Positions 6,896 to 46,100 of a stretch of 64,000 nt of DNA are shown here, one piece after another. Every line of letters begins with the position of its first letter. The first letter of the stretch is position 1. Source of the DNA: Microbulbifer sp. ALW1. GTDB lineage: Bacteria > Pseudomonadota > Gammaproteobacteria > Pseudomonadales > Cellvibrionaceae. Location of the stretch: contig NZ_CP047569.1 of assembly GCF_009903625.1 (NCBI RefSeq), forward strand, positions 4,324,501 through 4,388,500. The letters run 5' to 3'. The notes under the pieces are model-generated. The model was not told the origin of the DNA. It was given only the letters and a program-made list of their open reading frames with translations, and did no database searches. The position numbers and the translations under genes were made by a program.

Positions 6896-6904
6896 GGAAT
6901 CCTC

Positions 6905-7444: not shown

Positions 7445-7462
7445 GATATCTACCTGACCTAC

Positions 7463-15820: not shown

Positions 15821-18800
15821 TCAGTCGCGCATGGCCAGCGCGCCATCCATGGCAACCTCGGCGTAACCGGGCTCCTCAACTTCCGGGTCCAGCTCGCTGT
15901 ATTCGTCTGGATCCAACCAGTCCACCGGCTGCCAGAAGTATTCCTCAGCGTTGAGGAAGTCCAGCGGATGACTGAACCAGAGACGCTGCAGGTCACGCCC
16001 TTCCGCGCGCTCCCCCTGAATCGAGTTTTCCAACTGGTATTCGATAGACAGACGAGAGAAGCCGGGCTCACCCTCAACATATTCGCCTTCCTTGCCCTGA
16101 TAAGTCAGCACTACCGGGTCGCGGTAACGGGTAACCTGGGCATTGGTGAGCAACAGATTGTCCCGCGTATCCAACCAGAACTCTCCGTAGGGGGTTACCA
16201 GCTGACCGCTGACGCCCTGGGGCGAAAGGTCGACATTGTTCAGGGACAACGTCAGCTCACCACTGGTCATATCCAGCGCAGAGTAGACTTCCGCACTTTC
16301 CAGGCGGAGGTCACCACTGGTGGCTATGGCGCCGTAGTCGGTGAACAGGCGGTCAATAGTGAGGCGACTGGTGTTATCCACATTCACCCCGACCCACTGC
16401 GCCGCTGCACCATCGATACCGGTTAACGTCAGGAAGGTTTCCGCACTGCCCTGGCTATCCACGTTGATATCAATACTGGGGCCCCGGACCTCCAGCGGGC
16501 CGGACGTGGTCAGGTTTACCTGATTCAGCTGAACGCCTTCGCCACCAATAAAGGTGCCCTGCGGGACCGTCAGCTGGTTAGCCAGCAGGAAGCCATCTAT
16601 CCACAGGTGCGGCGTGCCAATCAATTCCTCGATATCCACGTCGCCAAACGCGCGAATCCGCACGTCCCCATTTTGCGCAGACAGCAGTTCTGCGTGGGCG
16701 TCATTCAGCAGGATCAGGTTGATGTCACCATCATCACTGACGGCGGACAGCCAGGGCAGATCCATCACCAGAGGGGCACCGATACCGGTAGCGGCGCTGA
16801 AGTAGCCGCGGCCACCGATAACGCCCTGTAAGTGCAGGTCGGAGTCACTGCGCCCGAGTATGCTGCCTTCGGTGCTCAGGTCGAAGGCGTAGTCGCCACT
16901 CCAGCTGCTACTGAGTGAGGACAGCAACATGTCTTCACGGCTGTGAACCCGAAGCGCACCCTGAGCCTCCATTCGACTGCCTGCGCCCATGGTCCAGCGG
17001 TTGGTGTCGATATCGACCGCACCACCGACCTTGACGAGCGTGGACGCGGCCTGACTGATATCGCCAGCCGCGCTCAGAGTCAAAGCACCACCGGTGTAAA
17101 TGTTGCGTTGCAGTGCAACATCGCCACCACTTTGCAACAACAGATCGCCGCCCAGGTTGAGCTGCTGCAGCTCCGCGTCGCCATCCAGTGCTACACGGCC
17201 ACTGCCAACCACTTGCAGGCGAGCGTCGCTGGCCATCTGCCAACTGTCTGCCCGCGCAGCAAAATCCCCGTGCACCACGAGGCGCTGCCCTTCAGCCTGA
17301 ACCAGAGCCGCTGCGGCATCCACTTCCAGGCTGGCAAAGACCTCTGCCCGCTCATTGAGCTGTACGCCAGCGCCGCTAACCAGGCTCGCGTCACCACTGC
17401 CGATAAACTGGGCAAGCACAATATCGCCAGCACTGTCGATTTCAGTGGTACCGCCAACCTGTAACAGGCTGCCAGCCCCCATTTGCCAACTGGCTAACTG
17501 CGCAACAAGGCTGCCGGCATTATTCAGTTGGCGACCTTCCTGCAGCAACAGAGTGCCATCTGCGCTGATTGCACTATTGCCACCAATGGTCACATCGCTG
17601 AACAGCGCCACATCGCCGCCAGCAACCAGTGACAGATCACCGTCCAGCGACAGGTCGCTGTTCAGGGTCCAGCTGCCGCCGCTGACAATATCGGCACTGC
17701 CGGCGAGATCCAGCGTGTGCAGTACCTGTCCATCGCGAGTGCGAATGATGGTATCGCCCAACACTTCCAGTAGAGCCTCGTCGCCCATCTCAAAGCGCTG
17801 CCCGTCCAGAGTGAAATCACCGTTTGTATGCATAGTGCGTGCGGCCGCAAGTGACACAGCGCCCTCTGCATTCAGCTGAATATCCCCCGCTGCGGTCACG
17901 TTATCCCGCAAGGCAATAGCGCCGCTGGCACTCAGCAATGAAAGTGCATCGCTCGCCGCCAGGGTATACAGGGAAATATCACCATCACTTTCCAGTGCGA
18001 AATGACCACCGCTCTGCAACAGACTGTTATCGCCCGCATACCAGCTGGCCGCCGCCACAACAACATCCCCAGCGCTGACAAACTGCGTCAGTGCCGACTG
18101 CGCCACATCACCACGGAGAGTGAAATCAGCACTTGCAACGGTGACGTCATCGACCAGCGTCAAGTTGTCGCCATCGACGATGGTTAGCGATCCGCTGAAG
18201 TCTGCAGTTTCGCTAAAGGTGATATCGCCACCGGCAGTCAGCTCGCTGTTGCCACCGATGGTCAGCAGTGCGAATTCTTGTGTTGCATCGGTCTCGGCGG
18301 TGAAGTCGCCGATCAGATTCAGCTGAGCACCACTGCCCATGGTGAAGCCGTTGCCGTTAAGGATCAGACTCGCACCGCCCTGCAGCAAGGCTGCGTCATT
18401 CATGGCGATGGCGTCGACAGCCTGCAAGGTAACGGTATCTGCAGCGATCAGAGATTCGCGCAGAGCAATGCCGGCACCGCTGTCGAGCGCCACGGTGCCG
18501 CTACTAGAAAGCTGCGCCATATCCATACCGGCGGCTGTGGTGATCGCCAGAGCACCGCCGGTTTGCAGCAGTGCACCGTCACCCATACTCCAGCTGTTAG
18601 CAGAAGCCAGCAGATCGCCATCAAGCGCGAAGGTTTGTGCCGCTGTCTGCGATACATCTCCGCGCAAAGTCAGATCTGCGCTTGCCGCGTTGACGTCACC
18701 GATCAGCATCAGGCTGTCACCGTCGACGATGGTCAGAGCACCGGTCAGGTCTGCAGTTTCATTGAATGCGATGTCGCCACCGGCAGTGAGCTGGGCATTA

Positions 18801-21800
18801 CCGCCAATGGTCAGCAGTGCGAAGTCTTGTTCTACATCGGTCTCGGCGGTGAAGTCGCCGACCAGAATCAGCTGAGCACCACTGCCCATGGTGAAGCTGT
18901 TGCCGTTAAGTACCAGGCTCGCACCGCCCTGCAGCAGCGCCACGTCACTCATGGCGATAGCGTCTACTGCCTGCAGGGTAATGCTATCTACTGCGACCAG
19001 GGATTCACGGAGAGCAACACCAGCACCGCTGTTGAGCGCAACGGTGGTGCCGCTATTCAGCTGCGCCAGATCCATACCGGCTGCCGTGGTAATCGCCAGA
19101 GCACCACCGGTTTGCAGCAGAGCACCTTCACCCATGCTCCAGCTGTTAGCGGAAGCCAGCAGATCGCCATCAAGCGCGAAAGTTTGTGCCGCAGACTGGG
19201 TGACATCGCCGCGCAGGGTGAGATCAGCGCTTGCCGCGTTGACGTCACCGACCAGTGCCAGATTGTTGCCATCAACGATGGTCAGGGCACCAGTCAGATC
19301 TGCGGTTTCATTGAACGCGATATCGCCACCGGCAGTAAGCTGGGTGTTGCCACCAACAGTCAGCAGCGCAAGCTGTTGGTCGGCAGCAGTTTCGGCGGTG
19401 AAAGCGCCGACCAGGTTCAGCTGAGCGCTGTTGCCCATGGTGAAGCTGTTGCCGTTGAGGATCAGATTCGCACCGCCCTGCAGCAGCGCCGCGTCACTCA
19501 TGGTGATAGCGTCGGCTGCCTGCAGGATTATGTTATCGACTGCGATCAAGGATTCGCGCAGAGCAATACCGGCACCACTGTTGAGAATGACGGTAGCGCC
19601 GCTAGCCAGCTGCGCCAGATCCATTTCCGTTACGGTGGTGATTGCCACAGCACCACCACTTTGCAGCAACGCGCCGTCACCCATGCTCCAGCTGTTAGCG
19701 GAAGCCTGCAGATTGCCATCAAGCGCGAAGGTTTGTGCCGCTGTCTGCGATACATCTCCGCGCAAAGTCAGATCTGCACCTGCCGCGTTGACGTCACCGA
19801 TCAGCACCAGATTGTTGCCATCGACGATGGTCAGGGCACCAGTCAAATCTGCAGTTTCATTGAATGCGATATCGTCACCGGCGGTGAGCTGGGTATTGCC
19901 ACCAACGGTCAGCAGTGCGAAGTCTTGTTCAGCATCGGTCTCTGCAGTGAGGCCACCGACCAGATTCAGCTGAGCGCTGCTGCCCATGGTGAAGCTGTTG
20001 CCGTTAAGCACAAGGTTCGCACCGCCCTGCAGCAGAGCAGCGTCATTCATGGCGATAGCGTCTACTGCCTGCAGGGTAACGCTGTCTGCGGCGATCAGGG
20101 ATTCGCGCAGAGCAATACCGGCACCGCTGTTGAGAATGACGGTAGTACCGCTAGCCAGCTGCGCCAGATCCATTCCCGTTACAGTGGTGATTGCCGTAGA
20201 ACCACCGATTTGCAGCAGAGCACCTTCACCCATGCTCCAGCTGTTCGCGGAAGCCAGCAGGTCGCCATCAAGCGCGAAGGTTTGTGCCGCAGTCTGCGAT
20301 ACCTTACCGCGCAGAGTCAGATCAGCGCTTGCCGCGTTGACGTCACCGACCAGCACCAGGCTGTCACCGTCGACGATGGCCAGAGCACCGGTCAGGTCTG
20401 CGGTTTCATTGAACGCGATATCGCCACCGGCAGTGAGCTGGGCATTGCCACCAACGGTCAGCAGCGCGAAGTCTTGTTCTGCATCAGTACCGACAGTGAA
20501 GTCGCCGACCAGATTCAGCTGAGCGCTGCTACCCATGATGAAGCTGTTGCCGTTAAGCACCAGGTTCGCACCGCCCTGCAGCAGAGCAGCGTCATTCATG
20601 GCGATGGTGTCTACTGCCTGCAGGTTAACGCTGTCTGCGGCGATCAGGGATTCGCGCAGAGCAATACCGGCACCGCTGTTGAGCGCAACGGTGGCGCCGC
20701 TATTCAGCTCCGCCAGATCCATACCAGCTGCCGTGGTGATCGCCAGAGCACCACCGGTTTGCAGCAGTGCGCCGTCACCCATGCTCCAGCTGTTACCGGA
20801 AGCCAGCAGGTCGCCATCGAGCGCAAAACTTTGTGCTGCAGACTGGATGACATCGCCACGCAGGGTGAGATCAGCGCTTGCCGCATTAACGTTGCCGACC
20901 AGCACCAGGCTGTCACCGTCGACGATGGCCAGAGCACCGGTCAGGTCTGCGGTTTCATTGAACGCGATATCGCCACCGGCAGTGAGCTGGGTATTGCCAC
21001 CAACAGTCAGCAGCGCAAAGCTTTGTTCAGCATCAGTATCGGCTGTGAAGTTGCCGACCAGGTTCAGCTGAGCACCACTGCCCATGGTGAAGCTGTTACC
21101 GTTGAGGATCAGGTTCGCACCGCCCTGTAACAGTGCAGCGTCACTCATGAAAATGGCGTCGACTGCCTGCAGGGTAACGCTATCTGCTGTGATCAAGGAT
21201 TCGCGCAGAGCAATACCGGCACCGCTGTTGAGAATGACGGTAGTACCGCTAGCCAGCTGCGCCAGATCCATTCCCGTTACAGTGGTGATTGCCGTAGAAC
21301 CACCGGTTTGCAGCAGAGCACCTTCACCCATGCTCCAGCTATTGGCGGAAGCCAGCAGGTCGCCATCGAACGCAAAGGTTTGTGCCGCAGACTGGGTGAC
21401 ATCGCCACGCAGGGCGAGATCAGCGCTTGCCGCACTAACGTCACCGACCAGCACCAGGCTGTCACCGTCGACGATGGCCAGAGCACCGGCCAGGTCTGCG
21501 GTTTCATTGAATGTGATATCGCCACCGGCAGTGAGCTGGGTATTGCCACCAACGGTCAGCAGCGCGAAGTCTTGTTCAGCATCAGTACCGACAGTGAAGT
21601 CGCCGACCAGATTCAGCTGAGCGCTGCTGCCCATGGTGAAGCTGTTACCGTTGAGGATCAGGTTCGCACCGCCCTGTAGCAGCGCCGCGTCACTCATGGC
21701 GATAGCGTCGACTGCCTGCAGGGTAACGCTGTCTGCTGTGATCAAGGATTCGCGCAGAGCAATACCGGTACCGCTGTTGAGCGCAACGGTAGCACCGCTA

Positions 21801-24800
21801 TCCAACTGCGCCAGATCCATACCAGCTGCCGTGGTGATCGCAAGAGTGCCACCGGTTTGCAGCAACGCACCGTCGCCCATGCTCCAGCTATTGGAAGAGG
21901 CTAGCAGGTCGCCAGCGAGCGCGAAGGTTTGTGCTGCAGACTGGGTGACGTCACCGCTCAGGGTGAAATCAGCGCTTGCCGCATTGACGTCACCGACCAG
22001 CATCAGGTTGTCACCGTCGACGATGGCCAGAGCACCGGTCAGGTCTGCGGTTTCATTGAATGCGATATCGCCACCGGCGGTCAGCTGGGTATTGCCACCA
22101 ACAGTCAGCAGCGCAAAGCGTTGTTCAGCATCGGTCTCGGCAGTGAAGTCGCCGACCAGATCCAATTGAGCACCACTGCCCATGGTGAAGCTGTTGCCGT
22201 TGAGAATCAGGTTCGCACCGCCCTGCAACAGACCAGCGTCACTCATAGCAATGGCATCGACTGCCTGCAGGGTTATGTTATCGGCTGCGATCAAGGATTC
22301 ACGCAGAGCAATTCCAGCACCGCTATCGAGCGCAACGGTGGCGCCGCTATTCAGCTGCGCCAGATCCATACCGGCTGCCGTGGTGATCGCCAGAGCACCA
22401 CCGGATTGCAGCAGTGCATTGTCATTCATTCTCCAGCTGTTCGCGGAGGCATCCAGCACGCCGCTGATGGCAAAGACTTGCGCCGCAGATTGAGAAATGT
22501 CACCGCGCAAACTCAGGTCGGCATCGGCCGAACTCAGGGTTCCCACAGCAACATCACCGATAAGAGACAGGTTGCCGCCGTCGGTGATTGTCAGAGCACC
22601 ACCGAAATCCGCCGTATCGTTGAAATAAATATCGCCACCGGCCGTCAGCAGCGAAGCGCCCTCGATATCCAGTAGTGCGAATTGCTGATCGCCCGCGGTG
22701 GCCGCCTCGAAGTCACCGGCTACCTGCAGGCTGGCTGCCGCATCCATAACCAGACTGGCGGCATCCACAAACAGGTTAGCGTTGGTGGTCAATGCATTGT
22801 TAAACGCCAGATCGCCACCGGCGTTGAGCGCAATCCCGCTCGCACTATCAATATTGTCCAGCGTCATGTTGCCGCTAGTGGTGAGCTGTACTGAACCCGC
22901 GAGGGACTGCAGCCGAGCACCGGCACCCATGCTCCAGCTATCGGCACTGCCGATCACATTGCCGTAACTTACGAGAGACTGGCCCGCAGACTGACTGACC
23001 GCGCCGCGGGCAGTCAGGTCGACGCCGCCGACAGAGATCGCGTTGCCAACCGCCACATCCCCGACGAAAGACACATCTGCGGCATCAGTAATCAGCAGGC
23101 CCCCGGCAATATTGCCGGTCTCGCTGAATGTCATATTACCGAGACTGCTCAGAGTGACATCGTCACCGGCAACCAGCTGGGCGAAGCGGATACTGTCGGC
23201 AGATTGCAATTGCAGCTTGCCGCGCGTACGTACCAGGCTACTGCTACCCGCATTGAAGCTGCCCAGGGTTGCCGTTGTGCCCGCAATACCACGCAGCGCG
23301 CCGAAAATATCAAACAGCACATCGTCTGCGACCATCACCGCGCCATCGGCTTCCAGCAACATGTCGGCGCCGCTCACCGCGGAGCCCACGGTGGTGGTGT
23401 TCTGGAAATTGAGATCGCCGCCGGCATCTATGGTGAGAGCGGCAGCGGTGGTCAGCAATCCAAAGCTGCTGTCATCGGACAGGGTAAATTCTGCCGAGCT
23501 ACCGCTCTGCAGCAGGCTGGTTGCATCGGCGTTCCAGGCGGAAGCCACAACCGTCATCGCATCGGAGCTGGTGAGCTGCTGGCCAGCGGCTTGTGAAACC
23601 ACACCGTCGACATCGATCAACAGATAATTGGCCGCGGCGGAACCCACACCTACACTGCCGTTAAATGCCAAATCGGCAGCGCCGGAAATATCCAGGAAGC
23701 CACCGATATCCGTACTGTCATTGAAGGCAATGTCGTCACCGGCAATCACCGTCATGTCACCGCCGACCGTAAGCTCTGCAAATTCCTGGCCCGCCAGCGT
23801 TTCCACTCCGACGTCGCCGTCCACCATCAGGTGACTGCCCACCCCCATATTCCAGCTGTTGGCTTGTGCCAGGGTGCCGCCAATTCCGCGCAGGCTTCCC
23901 GCCACGTCCAGCAGCACGGCGTCTACTACCGTCACGTCACCGCCGGTATTCAGCGCAAGGTCGCTACCTACAGTGGTGTCGGCGAGGAATGTCACATCGC
24001 CATCACTGTCAACCTGCAACGTACCGATAATATTCAGTGCACCGAATTCTGCACCGCTCATACCGAGATCAAAAGCAGCACCATTCGCAGAAATAAGCTG
24101 GCTATTTACATCCGCCAACAGGCCAGTGGCGGTCACATTGATCGAGCCCGCGTCGACCGTACTTGCATCCGCCAGGGTAAACAGATTGCCATTGCTCACC
24201 AGGAAGGCACCGCTGCTATAGGCGCTGCCCCCCAGTGCCACATTGCCGCTGCCGCCATTCAATGCAATGGAAACCGCGCGCGCGCCTGCGCTGCCAATAT
24301 CGCCCTGCACTTCCAGTCCATCGTTCGCATCGAGCGAGACCGCAGCACTGCCGAACAGATTACCGGTAACGAGGATGGCGTTACCTTCCAGGTCGATATT
24401 CCCCGCATTGACGCTGCCGAGTGTCAGCATCGCCTGCGCATCGGCAAACACATTGGCTGCGTTCAACTGCGCCGCATTGATGCTGCCACTGACGTTATCG
24501 ATCAGGTTCAGTGCAGTAAGACTGATATCGCCACCGGCAATCAGCGTCTGCAGATCCAGGCTGTCGATTGCCGTCAGGGTCATGTCGCCCTCGGAACGCA
24601 GCTCGGTTGCCGCAGCCATCGCCATGCTCTGGGCATCCGCCAGCAGGCGGGCGCTACCACCACTGGACGCGCTGGTATAGGCCACGTCCACGTCGCCATT
24701 GAATTGCAGATGGCCACTCGCCACCAGGTCCAGTTCACCACTGGTGGTGACGTTACCCAGAGTCATGCCGCCCGCCGTCGCGTCGAAATCGCCGCTGCCG

Positions 24801-27800
24801 ATGGTGATGTCGTGGGTATCGAGAGTGATGTTGTCCGCTTCGAATTTCGCCAGGCCGTTGACCTCAACGATGCCGGTAACTGAAGTGAAAATATCACCCG
24901 CGGCATACAGGTCGAGTGCGTCTGCGCGCAAGTCGCCAAACAGCACCAGATCGCCGCTGGCATCGATGCTCATGACGCCGGTGGTCCCGCCGGCAATTGC
25001 CGCTTCCGAGGTGTCGGCGATATTCAGCCAGGCATCGCCGGCACCGAAGGCCAACTGGCCGCCGCCGGACATTCGCAGGTTCAATGCCTGTGTGGAAGAG
25101 CCAAGATTGTGGTCTGTGTAAAGGCCGAGACGGCTGCCGGAGATTACGCTCTCGCTATCGAGACCGACAATGTCGTCACTGCTCACCATCCAGATGCGAT
25201 CACCGGCACTGACCGCATCGACGACGAGGTCGGCGCCTGTCTGGGTCACATAGAGGCTGCCGGCAGCGCCAGCCTGGCGCAGCACGCCGGAAAGCTGCAG
25301 TTTGAGATTGCTGCTGCCCGCGCCGATATCCCCCTGGGTATTGGCGATATACAAATCCCGCGCGGAAATATTGAAGCCCGATGATGCTGCACTGATGGAA
25401 CCGTTCACTGCCAGGCGCACATCACTGGTACTTGAAGTGATATTGCCGATAGTTAGACCGCTGGCAGATTCGATATAGATTTCGTCGCTCGCGCTGACAT
25501 TCAGTTCACCGGTGGTATCGATCTTGATCGGATCCACCTGCGACACGCTGAAGGTCACCAGATCGCCGTTTTCGGTTGTTTCGATATCGCCGGGGCCCGC
25601 TTCCAACAGCGCGATTTTCTGCGCGTCGGTAATCACCGGATTGTTGCGATCGATGGAGAACACCAGGTCCGCGAGATCCTGGCCCACACTACCGCCGTTG
25701 ACGGCGATATGCAGGTTCGGCGCAACGATATTGGCTTCACGGCTCGACAACGTAGCCTGGGCATCCGCATTCAGCGCTGCCGCGTTGATGCTGATATCCA
25801 ACTGGCTCTGGCTCCACTGGGAGCCCTCGGTGAGACCGGCATACCAGCTGGAAGTGTCGTCGATCTCCAACGTAAAACTGCTGTCGTAGCTGCTGGTGAA
25901 CAGGTCGCCGTAGTCGTACCCCTCAAGCGTGCCTTTCTGCTCCAAACCGATGGCATCGGCGGCATCGGCATAGGTATCCGGTGCCGCGACCTGATCGGCA
26001 AACCAGTCTTCCAGACCGAAGAATTCCGCCTTCGCCGCCGCAGTCGCTTCCGCATCGGTGGAAACACCGTAGCGGGATTTGAAGCTGTCCATAAACGCCG
26101 CGTTGATGGTGAAACCCGCTTCACTATCGTCATCCAGGCGCTGCTTGATCAACCAGTAGGTGTGGTAGTTACCAGTGAACTGGTTCTCGTAGCCGGTAAC
26201 GGCCACTTCACCCGCACTGCCGTCCTGAATGCCAAGGCGATCCCATACGGATTGCAGGTAGGCCAGTTCCTCATCGGATTTCTCGTTCTGGCCGATACCG
26301 TTCAACAGGCTGCCGTTACCGAGGCCGATGACCACATCCTCACTGGCAGAAATGGTGTTCACGGCGAGGTCGCCCACGGCCTGATAAATCGCAATATCGT
26401 CCGCGGCTTCCAGGGTGACTTCGTTGACGTCCACATTGATGTAGTCGTAAGTCGCGCTGTCGCCGATGGTACCGACACTGCCAATGCTGCCGGAATAGCT
26501 CACCAGGTTCAGGGTATCGCCCTGAATATGAACGCCGCTGCCGACGCCGCTCAATCCCTTGTCCACAGAGCCGACGATGTCGTACTGCGCAGCAAAGCGC
26601 TCCAGATTCACCGCACCGGATTTACCGGTGATATCGAAATACAGAGAGCCGCCGTTGGCATCCAGCGATACGGTTCCGGTGGTGATGTTAAGCGGATCTT
26701 CCAGCGTGCCCAGGTCACCCTGCCCGGCATACAGGCGCAGGATATCGGCATTGAACGAGGCGCCGGTGCCGGTGGTCAGGCTGGCACTGGTGTTGATGTC
26801 GGTGGTACCCAGCGGGTTGTAGATGTTGCCGTTGATGATCACGCCGGCGCTGGAATCGATATCGATACTGCCGGTGCCGACACCGGTAAACGAAATACCG
26901 ATGGTGTTATCCGCCTTCACAAAGGTGTGCGCGGACATGCCCAGCTCGTAGGGGATATAGGTGCCCGGGTCGGTATTGGTCCAGTTGGAGCCGTAGTAAT
27001 CCGAGTAGCTGTAACCGATGCCCCACCGGTAGCGGCTGATACTGGTGGCAGAAAGCTCCTGCTGGATAAAGTCGGTGGCAGAGCCATTGGTACAGGCGCC
27101 CCGGAAGGCGCTGCAGCTGGTGTAATAGCTGGCACCCAGATTCCACTCCAGCGCGCCGCCGGCGCCGGTGCCCTGCCAGGTGCCCACGGTGTCGGGGTAC
27201 TTGGCCAGGTAGCCATCCGGGAAGTCAACGTAAGAGCGGCTGACGGAAGCGTCTTCGCGCATGTAATACAACTGGCCGGCGAGCGGGTTATAGGTGGTGC
27301 TGGAAGTCGTACCGGTACCACCGCTGGCGCCCAGGTAGGTGCCGTCTTCCCAGCTGGCGGCATAGGAAGTGGTTTCGTACTCCTGGATCTGGCCGCCAGG
27401 GCTGTGCACGTACCAGTGGCTGAAGTAGTCATTACTACCGCCGCCTTGACTACGCATGTTCTTGCGGAAGTTGTGATCGGTAATGCGCACGATACCCACG
27501 GCATCGTCGCCCGCATCCAGGCTGTTGATCACCAGTTGGGTATTCGAGTAGTTATCGATGTCGATCTGGCCGAGGCCGTCGCGCACCAGGATCTTGCCGT
27601 CTTCACTGGTGGAAGAAACCATCGCGTTGATCGACAGGTAGCCGCCACCGGATACCGGCACATCGTCCACCAGCAACTGCTTGCTGGCCACATCGTAGGT
27701 CAGGGTGATGCCCTCGGCACCGCTGATCTTGCTGACCTGCGGATCGATGTAGATATAGCGATCTTCGAACGGCGTTTGAAAGTAGTTGATGTAATTCGGG

Positions 27801-30800
27801 TTATTCACACGCAGCCGGCCGCCGGGGGTCAATGCGATCTGGTCACCGTCGGACAGGCCGGCATAGCGGATGTACTCAGCGATGGCCGCATCGAAACCAC
27901 TGCCCACCGTGACCGACCAATTATTTTCGGTGCCCACTTCAATGGTGCCATTGATGTCCACCCGTCTGGCATTGATCACCACCTTCTCGCCAACAATGGT
28001 GGCACCGGGCGCACCAAGGTCGCTTTTCACCGATGAGTAGCTAGCGCTCTGAATCAGATTGCCCGTTTTGTCGTACACCGGCTGGAATTTCCAGTGGCGT
28101 CCGCCGCGGCTGGAGCTGTCGGACTTGAACTTCAAATCCACCGCGTCACCGCCGCCGTATTCCTGGGAGTCACTGAAGCCCCAGTTGAAGAACACGTGTA
28201 TCCAGTCGTAGTCGGCGTTGTCGTCCGAAGGATTGTCGAAGTAGCTGTGTTCGTTGTTGTAAGCAGTGCCGCCAATATGACATTCGTTAGCGGTGGCGCA
28301 CGCATAGAACCAGTTGTTGAACTCGTTGATGCCCACGGCATCGATATCCGCTTCGTAGCGATCGCTGATCCAGTAATGCACGAAGTCATATGCATTGGTG
28401 GGCTTCCACTTGTCGGTGAAGTTCACCAGCGAAGCTGGAGAGCGCCCATAGGAAACATCCGCATTGCCGGCGTTTACCACCAGCGAGCCTCTCTCCACAG
28501 TGATATTGATGGTATTGGCAGAAACCGCCGACTGCTGTAGCAGGTCGCCCTCTTTCAGGGTGATATCTACCGTGGACAGCAGGTTGGTGATGTTGCCGTC
28601 GACGATCACATCGGAATTCAGGTAATTCGTGCCCGACGGATTGTGGGTGATATGAATACCGGAGCTGACGCCGGTAGTGGTGCTGTTTTCCTCGGTGATA
28701 TAGCTGCTGTCGAGGCTGGCACCGCCGGTGACGTACACATTGCCGCCAGTCTGGTTGGCAATATACAGGTTGCCCACCAACAGGTGCTGGTCGTCGCGGT
28801 TGTTGATATCGATATAGGCATCGCCGCGCGCGGTGACCATGGGGTTATTGCCAAAACCACCCTGCAGGTCGATGGCATCCGCCACCAGGCTCACGTTGCC
28901 CGCAGACGCCGCGATACCGGTCACCGAGATCACATTGTTTTCCTGCTCGGACAGATCGCTCAGGATCACGTTCAGGTTGGCGATCTCGGTCTTCAGCGCA
29001 TTGATTTCATCCAGGTAGGGATTTTCACCGCTGTCACCGCTGGTACTGGTGCCACCGACACTGCCGCTGCCGCCAGTGCCACTGTCGTCGCTGCCATCGG
29101 TGGCGGTACCGGTTGTAGTGGTGGTATCAGCGGTCCAGTTTTCGTATTCATCCACCAGCGTCTGCAGCTCGTCGATATAGGCCTGCAGGCTGGCGCGGGA
29201 GGAGTATTTGTCCGACAGCTGCTCCGCCACACCGTAGCCGGCAAGCTGGGAAGTGATATTGCCGCTGTCGTCGATATCCACCCACTGATAGGCGTTCTGA
29301 CCGGCGACAATATTGCCGGAACCCTCGAATACCAGGGTGGAATTGGCGTTGGTATCGCTGGAGCCGAAAGTGGTTTCGGTAGAGAAGAGCTCGAGATAAG
29401 GGTTGCGCTCGACGCCGTCGGCATTGGCGTATAGCGAGCCCTCGTTGGCCTCGACGTTTACATGGCCATCGCTGCCGACATCGATATCGTCGCCCAGGAT
29501 CACCTTGTTGGTGAGATTGATATCCGCGTTGGCCGAATTGCCCGCGGGAATAGGTACCGCGGTCCAGTTGTACACATTGGTGCGCGCGTCGGCGGACAGC
29601 TGGTTTTCCGCCAGATAGTTGGAGCCGCGCCCGGCATAAATACCGATATCGCCGTAGCCGTTGATGATAACGTCTTGCCCGATATCCACCTTGTTGGTGA
29701 CGGTGATATCCACATCGGACACACCGCCGGCCACACCGGCAATCGCCCACACCGTGGTCTCGGCCTGGGCGGTGGCGGTACCCGTGGTATAGGTGCCAAT
29801 ACCGATCTCACCCACCGGGTTGTAGATCAGCGCATTGTCACCGATGTTCACCGTGTTGCTGGTGGTGGCGTCGATATCGGATTCGGAACCCGCGCCCTGC
29901 AGCGCGCCGCCAACTTTCAATACCGAGGCGTCGTAAACGTTGAAGCGCGAGTGGGCGTCGATAAAGATGCCGTGATCGTACTCGCTGTCGAGCCAGGCCA
30001 GGTCACTGATGGCCAGCACGGCGTTTTCGCCGATGGAAACCGTGGCGTCGATACCGGTGAGATCCTGATTGGAAATGGCCGCGGAACCGTTGGCGGCACC
30101 GCCGGCACCGGCATTGATGCTGGTCTCGAAGCCGGATGCCGCCGGGCTCTGGATTTGCATCGCGGTGTTGTCGGCTTCGATATCGATTTGCAGCGCTTCG
30201 AAGCTGACGTTCTGGCCCAGGGTTACTTCGGCGTCATTGTCGATATCCGAGTTGGACACGGCGCCGGAGCCGCCGACCACCGAGACGGTGGTGGAGTCGG
30301 TGCCGGCAAAGAACTGGCTCTCGTGCGCGGCGGACAGGCGCACCTCGCCTCCCATGAGCGGCACGGCAGTATAGCCGGAAGCCCAGTCCGCAATTTCAAC
30401 GCTAGCAGCCTTGTTATCGCTGGAATTGTTGTAGCTGTTGGCGTTCGAGACCGCTGCGGAACCGGCGTAGTAACCGCCACCACCCGCGGTGGTGAAGCTC
30501 TGGTTCTCGTCGTAGTTGTAGGCGTCGAGAATAAAATCGCCGAGACGCAGGGTGGCGTTGGAGATCGGGTTGGAGCCGTATTCCACCCGCGCCGAGGTGC
30601 TCGACTCGGCGGTGGAGAAATTGAAACCACCGGCGTACAGGCCCACGAAATAGCCATCGGCATCCGCGTACTGCACCGCGGTATTGCGCGCGTAGACACC
30701 GAAATCATTATCCGGAATACGCACGCCGTCGCCAACTTTGGCCACTGCCTGCGAGCGGTTCTCCGCCAGCGCTTCGGAACCCGCGACACCGGCCAGCAGG

Positions 30801-33800
30801 CCGCCGGATGCCGCAAACGCATTGGCGTCGGCGCTCACGTAATCATCGTCCGAACCATCGCCGGTTTCCGCGCGCATGGTCACGGTGCCTTCACCGGTGA
30901 AGTAGGTGCCGTCGGCGGCTTCTGCCACAGCGGTGGCATCGGCAATAGCGTAGGAGAAAGAGCCCCCCATGGAGCCACCCACGGCCACGGTCACGCCGTA
31001 GGCTCGTGAGAAGACTTCCGGTACTGCCTGGGCATCAATATTGACCGCGCCGCTACCCGCAGAAATGGTGCCGTATACCGTGGCATTGACGTTGGACTCG
31101 TCACGCGCATCGGTAATCACACCCTGCACGCCAGCGAGCAGGCCGCCCGCCAAGGCGAAGGCACTGGTTTTTACCAGACCGCCACTATAGGCATCGAGGT
31201 CGATATTGTTGTAACCGTCGATGCTGTGGCCGGTCGCACCCAGCCAGGCATCCACGTCGCTGTTCTTCTCGGCAAAACCGATCGACACACCGATCGCCGC
31301 AGCACCAACACTGACACTGAGCGAGCCATCGGTGGGGTCGCCCGGCTTACCGGCATCCAGGTCGCCCACTCTGAGTTCGGTGGTGTCGCGTGCCGATACT
31401 GAGAGATCGCCGGTGTCATCACCGGCCGCCGACGTCACGCCCGCCACGGTGCGCAGTTCACTGCGCAAATCGTTATAGCTGATCGCAACGCCAGTGCCGC
31501 CGCCGCTGATGACGAAGGATTTCATTTCGCCTGCAGCATCGTCATCGGACACGTCCATCACCTGCGCGTCCACGGTGACGTTGTTGGCGGAGAGATCGGT
31601 GTCCACGGTGGCGATGGTCATGTCGTACAGACGGGTGACACCCACCGCACCGCCGATAGCGATACTGCCAAGGGAAGCCGCGCCCAGGCCCTGATAAGTG
31701 TGCAGCAGCGTCTGTGCGTCCACATCCAGGGTGTCCGCATTGATAGCGCCGCCGGAGATGCGCGCGGCCACCACACTCTCACCACTCAGCTTCAGCGAAT
31801 TGCCGGATTCGGTGCTGGTGGCGGTGCTGGGTGCAGAAGTGCTCTCGATGGTGGTACCGCTCTCTTCCTCAATCGCGGCGATATCCGCGCTGGAGAGATG
31901 CGGGTTGTAGGCCGCGGTGTCTTCCGCCATCACGCTGTTCGCAGACTGGCGCGAGGGATCGAATTCGTCTTCGGCATTGGTGCCGTCGTCGGTGGTGGTA
32001 TCGCCCTGGCCGAATAGCGCCACACCAATACTTACCGCCGCGCCCACATTGGTGGAAGCGCCGCCGGCAATGGAGATCATCCAGGCTTCGCGCTGGGCAG
32101 TGGCATCCATATCCAGCAGCGCAGTGTCGATTTCCGAACCAACCACTTCCGAGTACACCTGGCTGCGGCCCAGTACCACGTTGGCCACGGCGCCGACACC
32201 GACGCTGTTGCCGACACCGATGCCCAGGGTTTCCTGGTCGACATCGAGAATTTCCTGCGCATTGACCACGACGCTGGTGGCATCGCTGCTGCCGTCCTGC
32301 CCGATGATCTGGGTAGTGAAGTAGTCGTCGGTGCTGTCGGCGGCGGTACCGTTATCGTGCAGCAGCCCGTGTACCGCCGCTCGGGTCTCGCCTTTGAATT
32401 CGGTGACGTTGATCATCGCCGCCACACCGACACCGGTGCTGACACCCGCGCCGAGGGAGTAGCTGTTGACGCTCTCCAGGCGGTCCGCATCCACGGTCAC
32501 ATTGTCGGCCTTGATCAGGGTACTGTCGGCATCGGCGCTATCGTCCAGGTCGTTACCGATCAACGCGGTGCTGTTGCCGCCGAGAATATTCACCGCGAGG
32601 CCAATACCCACACCCACGTTGGTGCCAATACCGGCGGAGCCCGCCGCAGAGTTCACATCCTGGCGACGCTCTGCATTCACCACCACATCGCCGGCGGTGA
32701 CGGTGCTGTCGTGCAGCCATGCCTTGGTGCCGCCCTTCATCAGGTTGATGGTGACCGACGCGGTACCACCAATACCGCCCTCGCCGCCGACACCCGCGGC
32801 GACACCGGCGGAAACCGCCTGCGCCAGCTGGGTGGAGTTGGCCTCCAGGGTCAGTTCGTCAGCATTGACGGTGGAATTGTCGATCTCCGCACTGGCGGAC
32901 TTGCCCATGTGGTTGGTGGTGAAACCGCCCACACCGGAACCACCGAGCGATACTGCGATACCGGCGGAAACGCCCAGACCGTAGTCGTGGCTGGAACCGC
33001 GCACCGTGACATCGGCGCCGTCCTGATTGGAAACGCCGCTGTTGATAGTGGCATTCTTGATATAGGCATCGGTGCTGGACTCGAACACATTGGTGGCCAC
33101 GTTGGCGGTGATCGCCACGTTCTTGCCACCGGAGCCGCCCACAGTAATCGCCTGCTGTTTCACAAAACTGGTGGCATTGACACCAATGCCGGTGATGGCC
33201 TGCGTCCCCTCTTTCAGGTTCTGCGAACCAAACGCCGTGGTGAGGTCATCCATGGACACATCGCCGTTACCCACCGCGCTGGAATTGCCGTCGCTGTCCT
33301 CATCCGTGGCGGAAAGGTCCGGCAACGCCGTCATGCCAGAGAGCTCACCGTCGAGAATATTGAAGGTGCCCGCGAGACCCAGGGCCTTGACGGTGGCATC
33401 TTCGATATACGCCTGGGTCTTGCCGTATTCCACTGCGGTGGAAATGGCGATGGCGCCGGCGCCACCGTTCAGGCCCACGCCCACGGCGCCACTGCCTACC
33501 AGGTTTTCGGTATTGGCCAGGGCTTCCACGCCCACGTTGCCGTAGGCATTGATTTTCGCCTTGTCGGCAATACGCGCGGTGACATTGCCGTCCACCACAC
33601 CGGTGCCGACAGAGGGCGCAACGGAAACCTGCTTGGATGCCGCCACACCGGCATCGATGGTGAGCAGCCAGTTGTCACGCAGCGCTTCCACATAAACGTG
33701 CTTGGCGTTGAGTACGGTGCTTAAGTCAGAACTATCGTCGCCGAGAATTTCACTGGTGACATCACTGTCGACACGGTTCACCGCCGCGGCGATACCGCCG

Positions 33801-36800
33801 GCGGAACCGCTGGCAGAGCCGGCGCCCATCCAGGCGGTGGAGACACTGTCGGTGTAGTCCGCGGACTGCACGCGAATGGTGCCGCCGGTGCTGCTGGCGG
33901 AGCCCAGTGCGTTGCTACCCACATTCTTGATCGCCGCCTGCACCGTCTGATCCAGATCGGTAACGCTGAGGGCACCGGCAAAGGCCAGGCCGGAGCTGCC
34001 GGTGGAAGCACCGATACCGATGGCATTACCAACCAGCAGGTTGGCGTCGCCGTCGGAACCGCTGGATGCTTTGACGGTAACATCGCCGGAAGCTTCCAGG
34101 TCGATATTGCCAATGCGCGCCAGTGTTTCGTGGCCACTGTCACCGATCAGGTTGAGCGCGACCGCAAGACCGGCGGCAAAGCCGGTGCCGGAAGAAATTG
34201 CCACGGAGCCGGCCACATTGACCAGGTCCATATCGTTCTGCGCAATCACCGACACATCGTCGGCGTACACGGTGCCATTTTTGTAACCGTCCCAGTCGCC
34301 CAGTTCCGCGCGCACGATATTGTTCAGGCTATTCACCGCCACCGAGCCGACGCCCGAGTACTTGCCGGTGGCGACACCGAGGCCCGCGGCCACGGTATAC
34401 AGCAGCGCCTCATCGCGCGCAGACACATCGATGCTGCTGGCGGCGCTAGTGCTGGTGTTGATGGTGGCGTTTTTGATGATCGCGGTTTTTTCCGTCTGCA
34501 CATCCGCGTGCGCATAGGACAGGCCGAGGTTGGAACCGCCCGCCTGCAACACGCCGGCTACGGCGATAATGCGTTCGCCTTCACTGCCGTAGCTGTAGGC
34601 AGAACCGGTGCCGTCGTCACTGGTGTGGATCTCGGAATTATCGAACGCCGCAGCGCCGCTGAAATCGAAGTCTTCGTTGACCGAACTGGAACCGAGGGAG
34701 TCCAGAATCGCGTCCAGGCTGCCGACCTTGGTACCCGCCACATTGACCGCTACCGTATCCGCACCGGTAATGGTGACGTCCTCAAGACGCGCCTTGGTGT
34801 CGCCCTTGATGGAGCCGATGGCAAAGCTGCCCATAAAGCCGAAAGAGTTTTCAGCGTTATTGTTGTAGCCAACGCCGGCGGCGCCAATACCTATGCGCTG
34901 CAGGCCACGAGCGCTGATGTCGATGGTGTCGAAGTTGTAAATGGCACTGTTAGTAAAGAAAGCATCGTCCGCGTGGGTAACGACCGCTTCCACCGACTTG
35001 CCGCTGTACACGTCTTCGTCGTAAGCGGAAGACAACACATTGTTGCCGTCCGGGTTAGAGTCACCAATCAGGTTCGCGGGGTCGTCGATATCCGCAAAGG
35101 TGATGGCGAGGCCGAAACCGGTTTTGCCGCCGCCGTACAGGGTACCGCCGCCCACACCGATATCGGTGTTGTTGTAAGCACTTACTTCGAAATCGTTGTC
35201 GCCATCACCACTGCCGCTGACGGTGCTGCCTTCCATGCGCGCGGAAGTGCCGTCGCGCACCTGGGCACCGGAAACGGACACGCCGGCGGAGGTGGATTTA
35301 CCACCGGCGCTTGGCGTATCGATGGCCAGGGCCAGGCCTATGGAGGTGAGCTCACCCCCATGCAGCGCCTGAATGGATAAATCATCGACGTTGCGCACAT
35401 CGGACTCGATCAGCCACGCCAGCGCATCGTTGAAGCTGATCTGGTAGGCAATGGCGCCGGCCATGGCGCTGGAGGTCGGCGTGGACGCGGACTTGGACAG
35501 GTTCAGTGCCGCAGAGCCGGACGCAGAGACGGAAATGATTTTCTGCAGGGCCTGGATATCCAGGTCCAGCTCCTCGCCCGTGTGCCCCTTGATGGTGGCG
35601 CCGTCGACGATGGCTTTCGCATCGAGGTTGGATACGGTCACGGTAACACTACCAGCACCGGCAAGGCTGGTCTGGTCGGAGTCCACCGAGGCGGTACCAT
35701 TGTCACCGGAGCTGGAACTGTCGTTGCTGCCGCTCTGGGAAGCGGAGTCCACTGAGCTGCTACTGGAGCCGGAATTGGCTTCACTCTGGGAGCTGGCCGT
35801 GTTGCTTTCCAGATCTCCGGACCAGCCACCAAACTTGCCACCGTACCAGCTTTCGAATTTTTCACCGATACCGGGTTCACCGGTGTCTTCCGTCAGCAGC
35901 GCACCGGCCACCGCGACACTGCCGGTGGAGCCACTGGATTTACCCCGCACTTCCACATTGCGCGCAATGATCGCGGGCGAGCTCGGCTGGGAAGGATTGG
36001 TGGGCGCGGACGGATCCGGCTGGGATCCATTTTTGAAGCCGACTTTTGCTTCTTCTTTGGAGTTGTCGCCGATAAACGCCTTGGTATCGCCCTGGGTGAT
36101 ATTCGCGGCGATCGCCACACCCACGGCGCTTTCACCAGCGGTCCAGTTCACCGCACCTGCTGCCGCCCAGTTACCCATCTGGTGGTCGGCAGTAATGATC
36201 AGGTCATCTGCGCTCACATAGGCGTTATTGGAAAGGGAAGCGTGGGTCAGTGCTTCGCTGTTCAGAATCGCGATCACACCATTGAAGCCGGTGCCGGTCC
36301 CCATGCCGGAAGACGGTGTCACCACAAAGTGGCGCTCGTCGGTTTCCGAAGTGACCTTCACATCGCCTGCGGCCGTAATGCTGGCATCGCCGATACCGGC
36401 GACCGCCTGGGTGGCCTGCTGCACGAAGGTAATGCTGCCGCCGATGGACTTGCCGTCGTCATTGGTGCCATTACCGTTCGGCAGAATACCCAGGGTGCCG
36501 ATATTGCCGGCCACATGGGCACTTTCAATCAGATTGTAGGCGCGCACCGCCACCGAGCTGTCAAAGTCGTATTTATAGGTAACGTCTTTGAAGGGTTCGA
36601 AATCGCTGAAAATACCGGGGCTGGTGAGACTGGAGTCGAGGTTGTAGGAAACACTCCAGTCGCTGGTGCCGGTGGTGGTGATCTCAACGCCGTCACCGAT
36701 CCACGCCTTGGTATTGATATCGTTCCACTGCACATTCACCGAACCGCCGTAGGCTTCCTTATCCGCCGCGGCGCCGGCATTGGCGAAGGTGGTGAGAATG

Positions 36801-39800
36801 TTATTCTGGAGACCGCCGGTACCATTGAATTTGCTGATAACGTCGGACAGGGACTCCCAGCGATCGTAGGTAGAAACGATCGGCATTTTCTGTTCGGAAA
36901 CCACACCCAGGTTTTGCGCCTTGATAGTGGTGTAGTCACCCACTTCTGCGACCGCATCGCCCTCGTGGATCGCGAAGTTGACGGCGAGCGCCGCGCTCTT
37001 TTCCGCGGCGTTGGTCTGCTGCGCGCCGGCACTGCCGTCTTTGGGGGAGGTCACCGCAGTTTCTGCTGAGGTGCGGTAACCGCCCTGGTCGCCACCCACG
37101 GCGCCGCGGCCATCACCGCCGATCACCGCGTCGTTGTCGGTACCGAGATCGGTGGCCGCCGCTACCAGCACATTGCCGCTGGCATCAATGGTCGGGGCAT
37201 CGCTCTGGCCGCTGGCGTTGGTGCCGAGGTAGGCGTAGGCCTCTTTGTCCGAAAGGTTGAGAGAGAAGGACAGACCGCCCTTCCAGTCCACTTTGCCGGA
37301 GGAATCACTGGATGCACTGGAGTCCACACCGCCGGGCAGATATTTGGTCAGCAGGCTGGACACACCGCCCTGCACTTTCCCCATGCCGGCCACCAGTTTG
37401 GAACCGATAGTGCGCGTGAGAATGCTACCGCCCACCGCGACGCCGGAGTGCACCCGCTGCTCCACGGTGCGATCGAGAGCCACTACGGTGACGTCGCCCA
37501 CCTGATCGGCGCTGCTGCCGAGATCCGCGCCCATTTCTGCGGTGGCACTGGAATCGAAGTCGCCCACCGCCACGGCGATGCCATAGCGCGTATTGGAAAG
37601 TCCGTAGACCGAAGCCGAGGTGTAAAAGCGGTTGAGGTTTTCTGCGGCCAGCAGCAGGTTGTCGGCATCCAGGGTAGCGCCGGTTTCAATCACCGCCTTG
37701 GCGTCGACATCCGCCTCACCCACTGCGACGGCAGCCACTACCTTGTTGGATTTGTCAGCTTCCAGCACGAATGCGCTGGAGGAAACATAGGCTTCGTTGT
37801 GCGCGGTCACCGCCAGGTCGCCACCGGCGCTGATGGTCGCACCGGATTTGACGGTGGTGGTACTGGTGGCATCACCGCTGACGTAAATACCGGCGAGCGC
37901 TGCGGTCAACACGTCGGCGCCCATGACCAGCGCCATGGCCTCGGCCACCGAGTGCGAATCCGCAGACAGGGTGACGTTACCGGCGGCGGTGATATTGGCA
38001 CCGCTGTTGACGGTGACGGTCGCGTCGGAATCGGCCTCCATATAGTTGAAATCCACACCCGCGAGCGCGGCCACGGTTTTCAGGCCGAGGGTAGTGCCAA
38101 TTTCTTCGTAGATGGAACTGGTCGACGAACTGTAGGCTTTAGCCGTAACGTTATTGGCTTCGATGGTGCCGGACAGGTCGATGCTGGTTTCGGCCCTGGC
38201 TTTGCCATAGCCCACCGCATCGGTTTCACTCGCGGTCAGGTTCACGTCACCGTCGGTGGTACTGCTGTCGCCATCCACCGTATCCAGAACACCGGTGCTG
38301 GCGAGGCTAATGTTTTTACCTTTCAGGTCGATGTTACCGACGGTACTGCCGCTACCAGCAGTGCTGGTGAGGCTGCCCGCGACAGTAATCGTGTCAGCCT
38401 CCACCGAGATACCTGCAGCGGTAACCGAGGCCGTGGACTCAATGGTGACACTGTCGGCGACAAACTTCAGCAGGCCGCCGTAGAGAATATCTTCGGCCCA
38501 GCTCAGGGATGAATCACTGTTCAGGGTCAGAGCGCTGGCATTGAGGCCGGTCAGGTCCAGGGTGTCATCGATATTTGCGGTCAGCAGAATCGATTCGGAC
38601 GCGTTGAAGGTACCGCTGTTGTAAAAACTATCGACGTCGAGGGAAATATTGTCCGCGTCCAGGGTGGTACCGGAGGTTACCGTGAGACTGCTGCCATTGA
38701 AGCTGATGTCTTTGCCGGTGAAATTGAAGTCCGTTCCGCTGCTATTCCAGACAATATCGTCCGAGTCATAGCCGGTTACCGCGGTGCCAGACAACACTAT
38801 GTCGTTGTCGGTACTAATGGCCAACATGCTGTAGTTCAACATGGAAAGAATGCCATAGTCGGCATCCTTCACCAGGCTGATGGTGCCAAAAGTAGAGGCA
38901 TCGCTGTCGCCGGCATCAGCAGTTACCGTGCCTTCAACAATGGTATCGCCAGATTCGAGGGTGACGTTGGCAGCCGTCACCGATGCATTTTTGGTAACGG
39001 TAATACCCGCAGCGGTAAGACTGAGGTCACCATCAAAGTCCACGTCGGCCGCTAACTTAAAGTCATCGACCCCGGCATTTTTGTATTCGGTATCCGCGGC
39101 ATTTTTCGCAAATACCATATTGTTGGACGTGGTGAGCGAGAGGCCGTCGGCAGAAATCTTGGCAAAATCAAAAGCCAGGGTGGCACCGGACAGGCCGACC
39201 TGACCGAGAGTGGTGCCATCACCTGCAGCCTTGAGCCAGGCATCCGCTTGTACACCATTGGTCGCTGTCAGGGTGATATCTACTGCGGTTACATCAATAC
39301 CCGCATCGATATCGTCGGCATTGACCTCCAGTGCAAAGCCCAGGTCAACCGCACCACCAGTCTCTTCCCACACAATGTCGCCGGCACTGACGGTCAGACT
39401 CGCGGCATTGTCGGTAATGTAGAAATCGTTCACGGTATCGACACGCACGATTGCCGCGGTGATATTGCCGAGATCATCGTAGTCGGCGTCGCCATCCAGC
39501 AGCACCGTGCCGGTGCTGCCGTCGGCAGTGGCATCCGCAGAAAGACTGCCATTAATCGCGATATCACTCGCGTGCAGACTGACATCGGAGCCGGAAACAA
39601 CGTTGCCTGCTGCGATCGATATACTGCCACCGGTGATATCCAGCTGATCGTAGGTATCGAGATTACCCACGATCACCAGGTCACCGGTGCCCGCAGACTC
39701 TGCCAACACCACCGCGCCGCTGCCGCCGTCAATTTTGGCGGAGGCACTGTCGATATCAATCAGACCCGCGGTCGCGGTACTGCCATCGTCGGTACCCAGC

Positions 39801-40851
39801 GCCGTCATATTGCCGCTAATGGTAACTTGTGTATCGGCGGTAATATTGACGTTGCTCGCCAGCACTTCACCGGCAAGATTAATGCTGTCACCAATAAAGG
39901 TGGCCACTGTCTCGACGTCGTTGGCCGTTACCGAGTCGCGGGTATCGATAGTTGCCGCACTCGCCACATCAATGGTGTCGGCACTGATGGTAATACCACC
40001 GTCGGCCAGCAGATCACCGGCCAGGGAAATGTCCGTGGTAACGCCGGCACCCGCGGCACCAATATAAATACTGCCACCATCCTGCTGCAGCTCGGTGGGT
40101 GCGCTGGCATCGCCCACATTGACCTTCGCCGCATCGACATAAATGGCCTGGATAGCGTTACCCGCGGTCAGTACCGCTCCGCTATCCACCACCACCTGAT
40201 TACCGCGGATATCGACTCCGCTGGCCGTGTTGATTTTGCCGGAAACAGTAACCAGACCACTGGAGGAAACCGCATAGGAATTATCGTCGAGCGCAGTGAT
40301 TCCATCATCGGAAAATGCCGGCGTACTCAGATCCAGCCAGCTGTCGATTTCACTCTGGGAAGGGGTTTTTACCGAGAACTGCCCCACGTTGATAATCCCG
40401 GACGGGCCTACCAGAAAACCATAAGAGCTGGCGAATACCACATTGCCGCCCAGGGTCCCATCCTGGTAGCTGTTCAGTACACCATGCACTTCCGGGCGGC
40501 TATTGCGTACGATGTTCACCAGCTGGTCGATATCCTTGTCCAGCTCCAGGTTGACGGTATTCAGATCCCCCACCACGAAGTCATTGAAAACGTTGACTCC
40601 GACACTACCGTTTTTGTATTTACTGGTGACCTTCTGGACGTTGCTCCCCAGATCCTCAACATCCGTAAACTTATCCACAGCGTCGATATTGTGGGTCGCC
40701 GCAAATAGATTGACCGCCCCCCCGAAAGCAACGCACCCAGAGTTACCGTTTTGCCTGTATGCGTGCGCTTTCTCCAGTTTGGTTCAGCGCTCTGAGTGCG
40801 AGTGGCATAGCGAATGGCACGGGCAAGCAGTTGGTGGCGAAAGGGCTTCAT
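15821..40851 (-). CDS. giant two-partner-secretion exoprotein (filamentous haemagglutinin / LktA-type adhesin), frameshifted in the signal peptide
   Basis: This is a secreted, surface-type beta-helical giant. Uninterrupted coding runs from a GTG at 40678 for 8,285 residues but then lacks a signal peptide. An ATG at 40851 with AAGGA 8 nt upstream starts MKPFRHQLLARAIRYATR and a hydrophobic GKTVTLGALLSGG. It is out of frame until one base is added in a G7 run (40717-40723), giving AVNLFAATHNIDAVDKFTD and 8,343 residues. In the 8,285-residue numbering the TPS secretion domain covers about 1-170 (GGNVVFASSYGFLVGPSGII). Beta-helix repeats follow, with a Ser-rich linker near 1613-1680, an acidic coiled-coil-like insert near 3813-3920, non-repetitive inserts near 4080-4560 and 4790-5000, and 183-residue tandem repeats near 6078-7517. 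No C-terminal toxin or barrel is seen. The N-terminus resembles the leukotoxin LktA family of filamentous adhesins, from memory. It lies between SapC and TpsB genes. Confidence 0.9.
18130..22445 (-). repeat. about eight tandem 549-bp coding repeats
   Basis: Matching positions recur every 549 bp (for example 18339, 18888, 19986, 20535, 21084, 21633 and 22182; the unit near 19437 also fits). Each unit encodes 183 residues, with landmarks FTMGSGAQLNLVGDFTA, LTAGGDIAFNETADLTGAL, ANSWSMGDGALLQ and AGIALRESLIAADS. Central units differ by only a few residues, while units at both ends are more diverged. The period is a multiple of three, so gain or loss of units keeps the frame. Confidence 0.95.
40717..40723 (-). 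repeat. G7 homopolymer in the exoprotein signal-peptide codons
   Basis: Seven C on the plus strand (seven G in the coding strand) lie after the codons for LGALLS. With seven the ATG frame runs into an unrelated frame and stops at 40561. With eight it joins the 8,285-codon frame exactly. A tract of this kind can vary by slipped-strand mispairing, and it is also a common place for sequencing error. Confidence 0.85.
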
Positions 40852-40950
40852 GTGTATGGTCCTTGAAAACAGCTGGGAGTGTTTTCGTCGTTTTAATTTT
40901 TTTAATGACCGCCAAATGAACGGCCATGTTTATTTCCTTGCTAAAACAGC

Positions 40951-42975: not shown

Positions 42976-42981
42976 GAATAT

Positions 42982-45910: not shown

Positions 45911-46100
45911 TTACTCGATGATCTTGGCTACAACGCCAGCACCAACGGCACGGCCACCTTCGCAAATCGCGAAGCGCAGACCGTCTTCCATGACGATCGG
46001 AGCAATCAGGGTAACGGTCATTTGAACGTTATCACCCGGCATTACCATCTCGGCACCTTCCGGCAGCTCACATGCACCAGTTACGTCGGTGGTACGGAAA
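45911..46100 (-). pseudogene. tuf: truncated tuf: last 62 codons of a second EF-Tu gene
   Basis: About 190 bp match the 3' end of the complete tuf gene at 48356 almost base for base, from the codons for [15 protein letters not shown] to the stop. The frame is open, but four residues differ from the intact copy (Thr to Ala, Ala to Val, Arg to Cys, Thr to Ala). Similarity stops sharply at 46100, so domains 1, 2 and most of 3 are missing. It keeps the same orientation as tuf and a terminator of its own. It is a relic of a duplicated or displaced tuf. Confidence 0.93.

What the first reader, a model, noticed from the sequence alone, without database searches (positions are those of the whole stretch)
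40561..40851. Signal peptide of the giant exoprotein is cut off by one base in a G7 tract: phase variation or sequence error
The ATG at 40851 has a good ribosome site and starts a typical long TpsA signal sequence, but it is out of frame with the 8,285-codon body. Adding one G to the seven-G run at 40717-40723 joins both parts exactly: 25,032 bases, 8,344 codons. The joined h-region reads TVTLGALLSGGAVNLFAA. As written, the exoprotein would not be exported. Short poly-G runs near the 5' end of surface protein genes are a classical place for ON/OFF switching by slipped-strand mispairing. A homopolymer sequencing error is the main alternative.
Basis: partly seen in the sequence, partly recalled or inferred. 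Interest (0 to 1): 0.8.

Follow-up and report, generated by a model that had tools for sequence, protein, structure and literature searches.

The report
Likely run-length error breaks adhesin gene
The one-base frame break at the start of this giant surface-protein gene of a marine bacterium is likely a run-length error in the genome record rather than an on/off switch, because the same record also breaks three other conserved genes at runs of G while the five close relatives found to carry the gene read it in one frame.

Summary
The ATG at 40851 opens a 96-residue frame with a signal-like start; the 8,285-codon body lies in another frame; a G7 tract (40717-40723) sits at the change. The body starts with an LktA-type filamentous adhesin domain and has a TpsB partner. 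In 5 of 5 other Microbulbifer genomes with the gene, one frame runs from the matching ATG into the body, and the matching spot is no long G run.

What decides it: in 464 kb compared with the syntenic M. agarilyticus genome, this record has three more frame breaks, all at G runs of 6-8: in the only MurJ locus above cut-off, an M24 aminopeptidase and an alpha/beta hydrolase. A living cell with murJ broken is unlikely. I read the giant-gene break as the same artefact (0.8). A real recent mutation is possible (0.13): 86 other G/C runs of 7-8 showed no confirmed break. Phase variation has no direct support: the tract is short and not conserved, the genome has no G run of 9 or more, and no second isolate was found. 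Raw reads would settle it.

The parts
40860..40864 (-). AAGGA, likely ribosome-binding site of the signal frame
   Evidence: read; the whole ATG-proximal stretch is conserved in the 5 relatives
40561..40851 (-). 96-residue frame from ATG 40851 with the signal-sequence start MKPFRHQLLARAIR
   Evidence: homologous to the N-termini of the 5 relatives and of P0001, P0003 and P0004
40717..40723 (-). G7 tract at which the frame changes
   Evidence: only G/C run of 7 or more in the gene region
15821..40678 (-). body of the giant exoprotein, 8,285 codons, open throughout
   Evidence: purifying selection in the parts compared
40178..40633 (-). LktA-family filamentous adhesin N-terminal domain (NF012204)
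   Evidence: 142.3 bits against a cut-off of 60, residues 16-167 of the body
14067..15752 (-). TpsB-type outer-membrane transporter (POTRA_2 and ShlB domains), likely partner

Best explanation
The frame break at the G7 tract (40717-40723) is likely a homopolymer-length error of this genome record, and the living strain would then make the giant LktA-type exoprotein with its signal peptide attached. Shown: the two frames are offset by one base; the 5 relatives' copies are in one frame; the same record has three other one-base offsets at G runs in conserved genes, all of the same sense modulo 3. Inferred: that the four share one technical cause, and that the protein is exported through Sec and the neighbouring TpsB.
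For: Relatives in one frame, 5 of 5. Three further breaks in 464 kb of this record against syntenic G008, at G6, G6 and G8, in MurJ (the only locus of PF03023 above cut-off in the genome, its two parts reported as two open frames), an M24 aminopeptidase and an alpha/beta hydrolase. In matched coding stretches 3 of 41 G/C runs of 6 or more are broken here and 0 of 23 in G008; the giant gene was left out of that count. All four offsets have the same sense modulo 3 (worked out; 1 in 8 by chance). Lowest ratio of eight- to seven-base G/C runs and the only absence of nine-base runs among 25 Microbulbifer genomes. Body open over 24.9 kb and under purifying selection. The giant protein of this genome is not among the listed hits while its TpsB is, which fits a gene annotated as broken.
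Against: A coding-phase survey of 86 other G/C runs of 7-8 in this genome (of 109) found 39 with unchanged phase and no confirmed break; the 8 flagged were set aside by eye, not by homology; 21 were called on one side only and 18 on neither. A-run ratios are ordinary. MurJ is not indispensable everywhere (B. subtilis: PMC12096821, title). In the long-read assembly study A and T runs erred more than G and C (PMC12007338, passages). Raw reads and sequencing method are unknown.
Confidence: 0.8

Rival explanations
1. The break is a real, recent slippage mutation at the G tract that switched the gene off in the sequenced stock, for example during laboratory culture; the body looks intact because the event is young.
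For: No confirmed break at 86 other G/C runs of 7-8, so most such runs are recorded well; the gene is a large surface-protein gene, a kind often lost in culture (recalled).
Against: The same record breaks murJ and two other conserved genes at G runs, where real loss is unlikely.
Confidence: 0.13
2. ON/OFF phase variation by slipped-strand mispairing at the tract, with the OFF state recorded.
For: The tract lies in the signal-coding stretch and is the only G/C run of 7 or more in 25 kb; GGG makes up 38 of 1,018 glycine codons of the body and no GGG-GGG pair occurs among its 139 Gly-Gly pairs, so the tandem is unusual, though this is post hoc. fhaB of B. pertussis is a precedent (PMC7446907, PMC1891110, passages).
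Against: Tract not present at that spot in 5 of 5 relatives; length 7 only; no run of 9 or more in the genome; no second isolate found.
Confidence: 0.05
3. Recoding: the ribosome or RNA polymerase slips at the tract and makes some full-length protein from the recorded sequence.
For: The ATG frame reads G GGG GGG across the tract, the form of a -1 slippery heptamer (rule recalled); the RNA downstream folds slightly better than shuffles (-29.8 against -24.35 kcal/mol, z -1.88, 7 of 200 as good).
Against: None of the 5 relatives has the site or needs a shift; the folding signal is weak.
Confidence: 0.02

Closest known systems
Gene-fragmenting homopolymer errors of long-read assemblies (PMC12007338, passages read)
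   Same: one-base offsets at homopolymers that break conserved genes; deletion errors reported at runs of two to eight
   Different: there A and T runs erred most; here the three confirmed breaks are at G runs; the sequencing method of this record is unknown
fhaB of Bordetella pertussis, a phase-variable TpsA gene (PMC7446907 and PMC1891110, passages)
   Same: G tract inside a filamentous-haemagglutinin-type gene; lineage-specific tract (10 in B. pertussis, 3 and 2 in sister species)
   Different: tract of 10 with variants of 9 and 11 found mixed in isolates, well inside the gene; here 7, in the signal stretch, one record, no variation seen
LktA-family filamentous adhesins of other Microbulbifer
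   Same: N-terminal domain 80-91% identical; same neighbours, SapC gene and TpsB, in G008
   Different: their signal and body are in one frame; the four top full-length proteins listed have 6,771-7,326 residues against 8,285 codons in the body here

Membership tests
Homopolymer-length artefact of a genome record | frame break at a homopolymer in a gene that is intact in relatives | tested here: met
Homopolymer-length artefact of a genome record | same kind of break in other conserved genes of the same record | tested here: met
   three genes in 464 kb; but none confirmed at 86 runs of 7-8 elsewhere
Homopolymer-length artefact of a genome record | raw reads disagree with the recorded run length | not testable with these tools
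   no reads held
LktA-family filamentous adhesin (NF012204) with two-partner secretion | NF012204 N-terminal domain | tested here: met
   142.3 bits, cut-off 60
LktA-family filamentous adhesin (NF012204) with two-partner secretion | TpsB partner gene beside it | tested here: met
   14067-15752, POTRA_2 and ShlB
LktA-family filamentous adhesin (NF012204) with two-partner secretion | signal sequence in frame with the body | tested here: not met
   not in this record; in frame in the 5 other Microbulbifer and, by eye, in 9 more distant loci
Phase-variable contingency locus | tract length varies within or between isolates | not testable with these tools
   no reads and no second isolate
Phase-variable contingency locus | long, hypermutable tract | tested here: inconclusive
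   7 bases; fhaB has 10; no run of 9 or more in the genome
Programmed -1 frameshift | slippery site conserved in relatives | tested here: not met
Programmed -1 frameshift | stimulatory structure downstream | tested here: inconclusive
   z -1.88, 7 of 200 shuffles as good

The most novel reading that the evidence does not exclude
A young contingency switch in the making: in one free-living marine Microbulbifer lineage, two rare GGG codons in the signal peptide of an adhesin of over 8,000 residues created a G tract at which slippage turns export of the whole fibre on and off.
Probability: 0.05. Interest if true: 0.5.

Novelty: not a real feature. Interest (0 to 1): 0.1.

Why it matters
A tract in the right place can look like phase variation when the record itself is at fault, and there is a cheap test: look for breaks at the same kind of run in conserved genes of the same record. 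It also flags this assembly: at 3 breaks in 464 kb about 30 genes of the genome might be falsely broken (extrapolation). If the break were real, it would be an early stage of a switch in a giant adhesin of an environmental bacterium.

Tried and rejected
Phase variation as the main reading: dropped, tract absent in relatives and short. Programmed frameshift: dropped, not conserved. Old pseudogene: dropped, body open and constrained. GTG 40678 as the true start: unlikely, it leaves no signal sequence, and I saw no ribosome site ahead of it by eye. My own first reading, that G runs in this record are sound because the first 66 surveyed runs showed no break, was overturned by homology.

Rows dropped: of 6 sites flagged in own DNA, three were dropped (a 5' extension of EF-Tu, identified; a frame on the other strand at the right end of the window; a 97-residue frame). 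The 4 sites flagged in G008 were judged by eye and not pursued: a frame antisense to the region of window 6554-7558, an 81-residue frame over what looks like a tRNA, a 97-residue frame, and one N-terminal difference at a T6. Of 8 phase switches among 87 G/C runs of 6 or more in the 464 kb, 3 are the confirmed breaks, 4 are gene borders, a gene end or one continuous frame, and 1 (own 4581144) is unresolved. The phase test called the giant gene's own site on one side only, so it misses some. One search had a second G344 match above cut-off without a locus; it was not examined. Some database homologues are annotated from starts inside or after the signal (P0006, P0009, P0014, P0020); their DNA was not examined, except that L014, from the strain that P0009 is named for, has an in-frame signal, and G008, the likely source of P0002, is open to the matching ATG.

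Led nowhere: Tandem Repeats Finder on the gene, periods up to 500; plasmid search; papers on the family name (1 listed, unrelated by title) and on Microbulbifer with phase variation (2 listed, unrelated by title); promoter scan.

Full report
What is there. On the minus strand an ATG at 40851, with AAGGA at 40860-40864, opens a frame of 96 residues that starts MKPFRHQLLARAIR and closes at 40561. The 8,285-codon body (15821-40678) is open in another frame; stop to stop it reaches up to 40783, and its first ATG/GTG/TTG is the GTG at 40678. A G7 tract at 40717-40723 lies where the frames change over; it is the only G or C run of 7 or more in the 25,031-base gene region. The body begins with the NF012204 domain, 'leukotoxin LktA family filamentous adhesin' (142.3 bits, cut-off 60). 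A TpsB-type gene follows and a SapC gene lies upstream. The window lies in a single-contig genome of 4,682,287 bases. Its genus is Microbulbifer, because three same-genus genomes have contigs of the same length as named M. mangrovi and M. agarilyticus contigs; G008 has the contig length given for P0002 of M. agarilyticus.

Relatives. Of 48 genus genomes, 6 including this one have the family above cut-off. In the 5 others one frame runs from the matching ATG through the signal stretch into the body; at the matching spot none has a run of 5 or more G, though three have a G5 about 16 bases further upstream. Nine more distant loci also show an in-frame start and a hydrophobic stretch ahead of the domain, as judged by eye. 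So of 15 loci examined only this one is broken. In the protein collection the best full-length hits to residues 1-180 of the body are 82% identical, and short proteins reach 65%. The TpsB is listed at 100% on one contig, of this genome's length, while the giant protein of this genome is not listed; it may have been annotated as broken, which is an inference. No second isolate could be examined.

Selection. The body codons up to the end of the M. mangrovi contig (917 aligned) give dN 0.063, dS 0.693, ratio 0.091. The first 1,500 and last 1,000 codons against G008 give 0.188 and 0.131, TpsB 0.084 and the RpoB-like gene 0.054 (Nei-Gojobori; the dS values of the giant gene and TpsB against G008 are 1.5-2.2, near saturation). 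With the uninterrupted frame this speaks against an old pseudogene.

G runs in the record. The genome has 124 positions of seven G or C, 15 of eight and none of nine. Among 25 Microbulbifer genomes it has the lowest eight-to-seven ratio (0.12; the next is 0.17) and is the only one without a nine-mer (no formal test). A-run ratios are ordinary. I fetched 80 stretches around listed runs. A codon-based phase test of the 86 runs in them gave 39 with the same phase on both sides, 8 with a switch, 21 called on one side and 18 on neither. The 8 were put down by eye to gene borders or a continuous frame. Taken alone this spoke for a sound assembly, and it still counts against my reading.

Homology told otherwise. 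I compared 464 kb of this genome around and including the window with 480 kb of G008. In the window the long conserved minus-strand genes, EF-G-, RpoC- and RpoB-like by size and place (names recalled), match in one frame each. But G008 genes used as queries show three clear breaks in this genome: MurJ at 4296624-4296629 (G6), an M24 aminopeptidase at 4246981-4246986 (G6) and an alpha/beta hydrolase at 4398510-4398517 (G8) (families from the intact G008 genes). The phase test flags all three. MurJ is the only locus above cut-off for its family in the genome and is reported as two open frames; a third match is below cut-off. In matched coding stretches 3 of 41 G/C runs of 6 or more are broken here and 0 of 23 in G008 (which left out genes of 4,000 residues or more, so also the giant gene). 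All three offsets and that of the giant gene have the same sense modulo 3 (worked out by hand). One flagged site stays unresolved.

Reading. Loss of MurJ is unlikely in a living Gram-negative cell. The abstract beginnings seen describe MurJ as the lipid II flippase of peptidoglycan synthesis (PMC4990322, PMC9973255); that it is essential in E. coli I recall. It is not essential in B. subtilis (PMC12096821, title). The simplest account is that some G runs are recorded with a wrong length. Homopolymer indels are the typical error of long-read data (PMC12007338, passages; there A and T runs erred more). A survey of frame transitions says singletons are likely indel mutations or sequencing errors, and expects sequencing errors for one category of them, which I take to be those with one hit across the break (its definition lay outside the passages; PMC3711429). 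That this genome was sequenced with long reads is not known. I give 0.8 to the artefact.

Phase variation. The precedent in a TpsA gene is fhaB of B. pertussis: 10 G, with 9 and 11 mixed in isolates (PMC7446907, passages), and 3 and 2 in sister species (PMC1891110, passage). Lack of conservation alone therefore does not exclude a switch. But nothing here shows variation and the tract is short. The tandem GGG codons are unusual for this gene (38 of 1,018 glycines are GGG; no such pair among 139 Gly-Gly pairs of the body) and remain the one point in favour, noted after the fact.

Recoding. The ATG frame reads G GGG GGG across the tract, but none of the 5 relatives has this and the downstream fold is only weakly better than shuffles.

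Noticed in passing
G000:C1 4296624-4296629 (L149), 4246981-4246986 (L147), 4398510-4398517 (L151), all outside the window: Three conserved genes (MurJ, an M24 aminopeptidase, an alpha/beta hydrolase) are split by one-base offsets at G runs in this record; a fourth flagged site at 4581144 is unresolved.
   Followed up: partly
45914-46120 (-): A 69-residue fragment of the C-terminal domain of EF-Tu (PF03143) lies apart from the full tuf gene at 48356-49579.
   Followed up: partly
18278-22169: The far part of the giant gene holds repeats of about 549 bases, seen as antisense frames of about 178 residues at regular spacing and as 183-residue units matching several places.
   Followed up: no
42442-45813 (+): An ECF sigma factor gene is followed by a Ser/Thr protein kinase with TPR repeats, divergent from the SapC and adhesin genes.
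   Followed up: no
G023 and G020 (other Microbulbifer genomes): G023 has 667 nine-base G/C positions, far above the other Microbulbifer genomes listed; G020 has a run of 21 G at C4:454728-454748. Either unusual poly-G biology or assembly artefact.
   Followed up: no
G000:C1 326993-327745 (L001): A second, separate gene with the general TPS domain PF05860 (59 bits, open frame of 4,099 residues) lies elsewhere in this genome.
   Followed up: no
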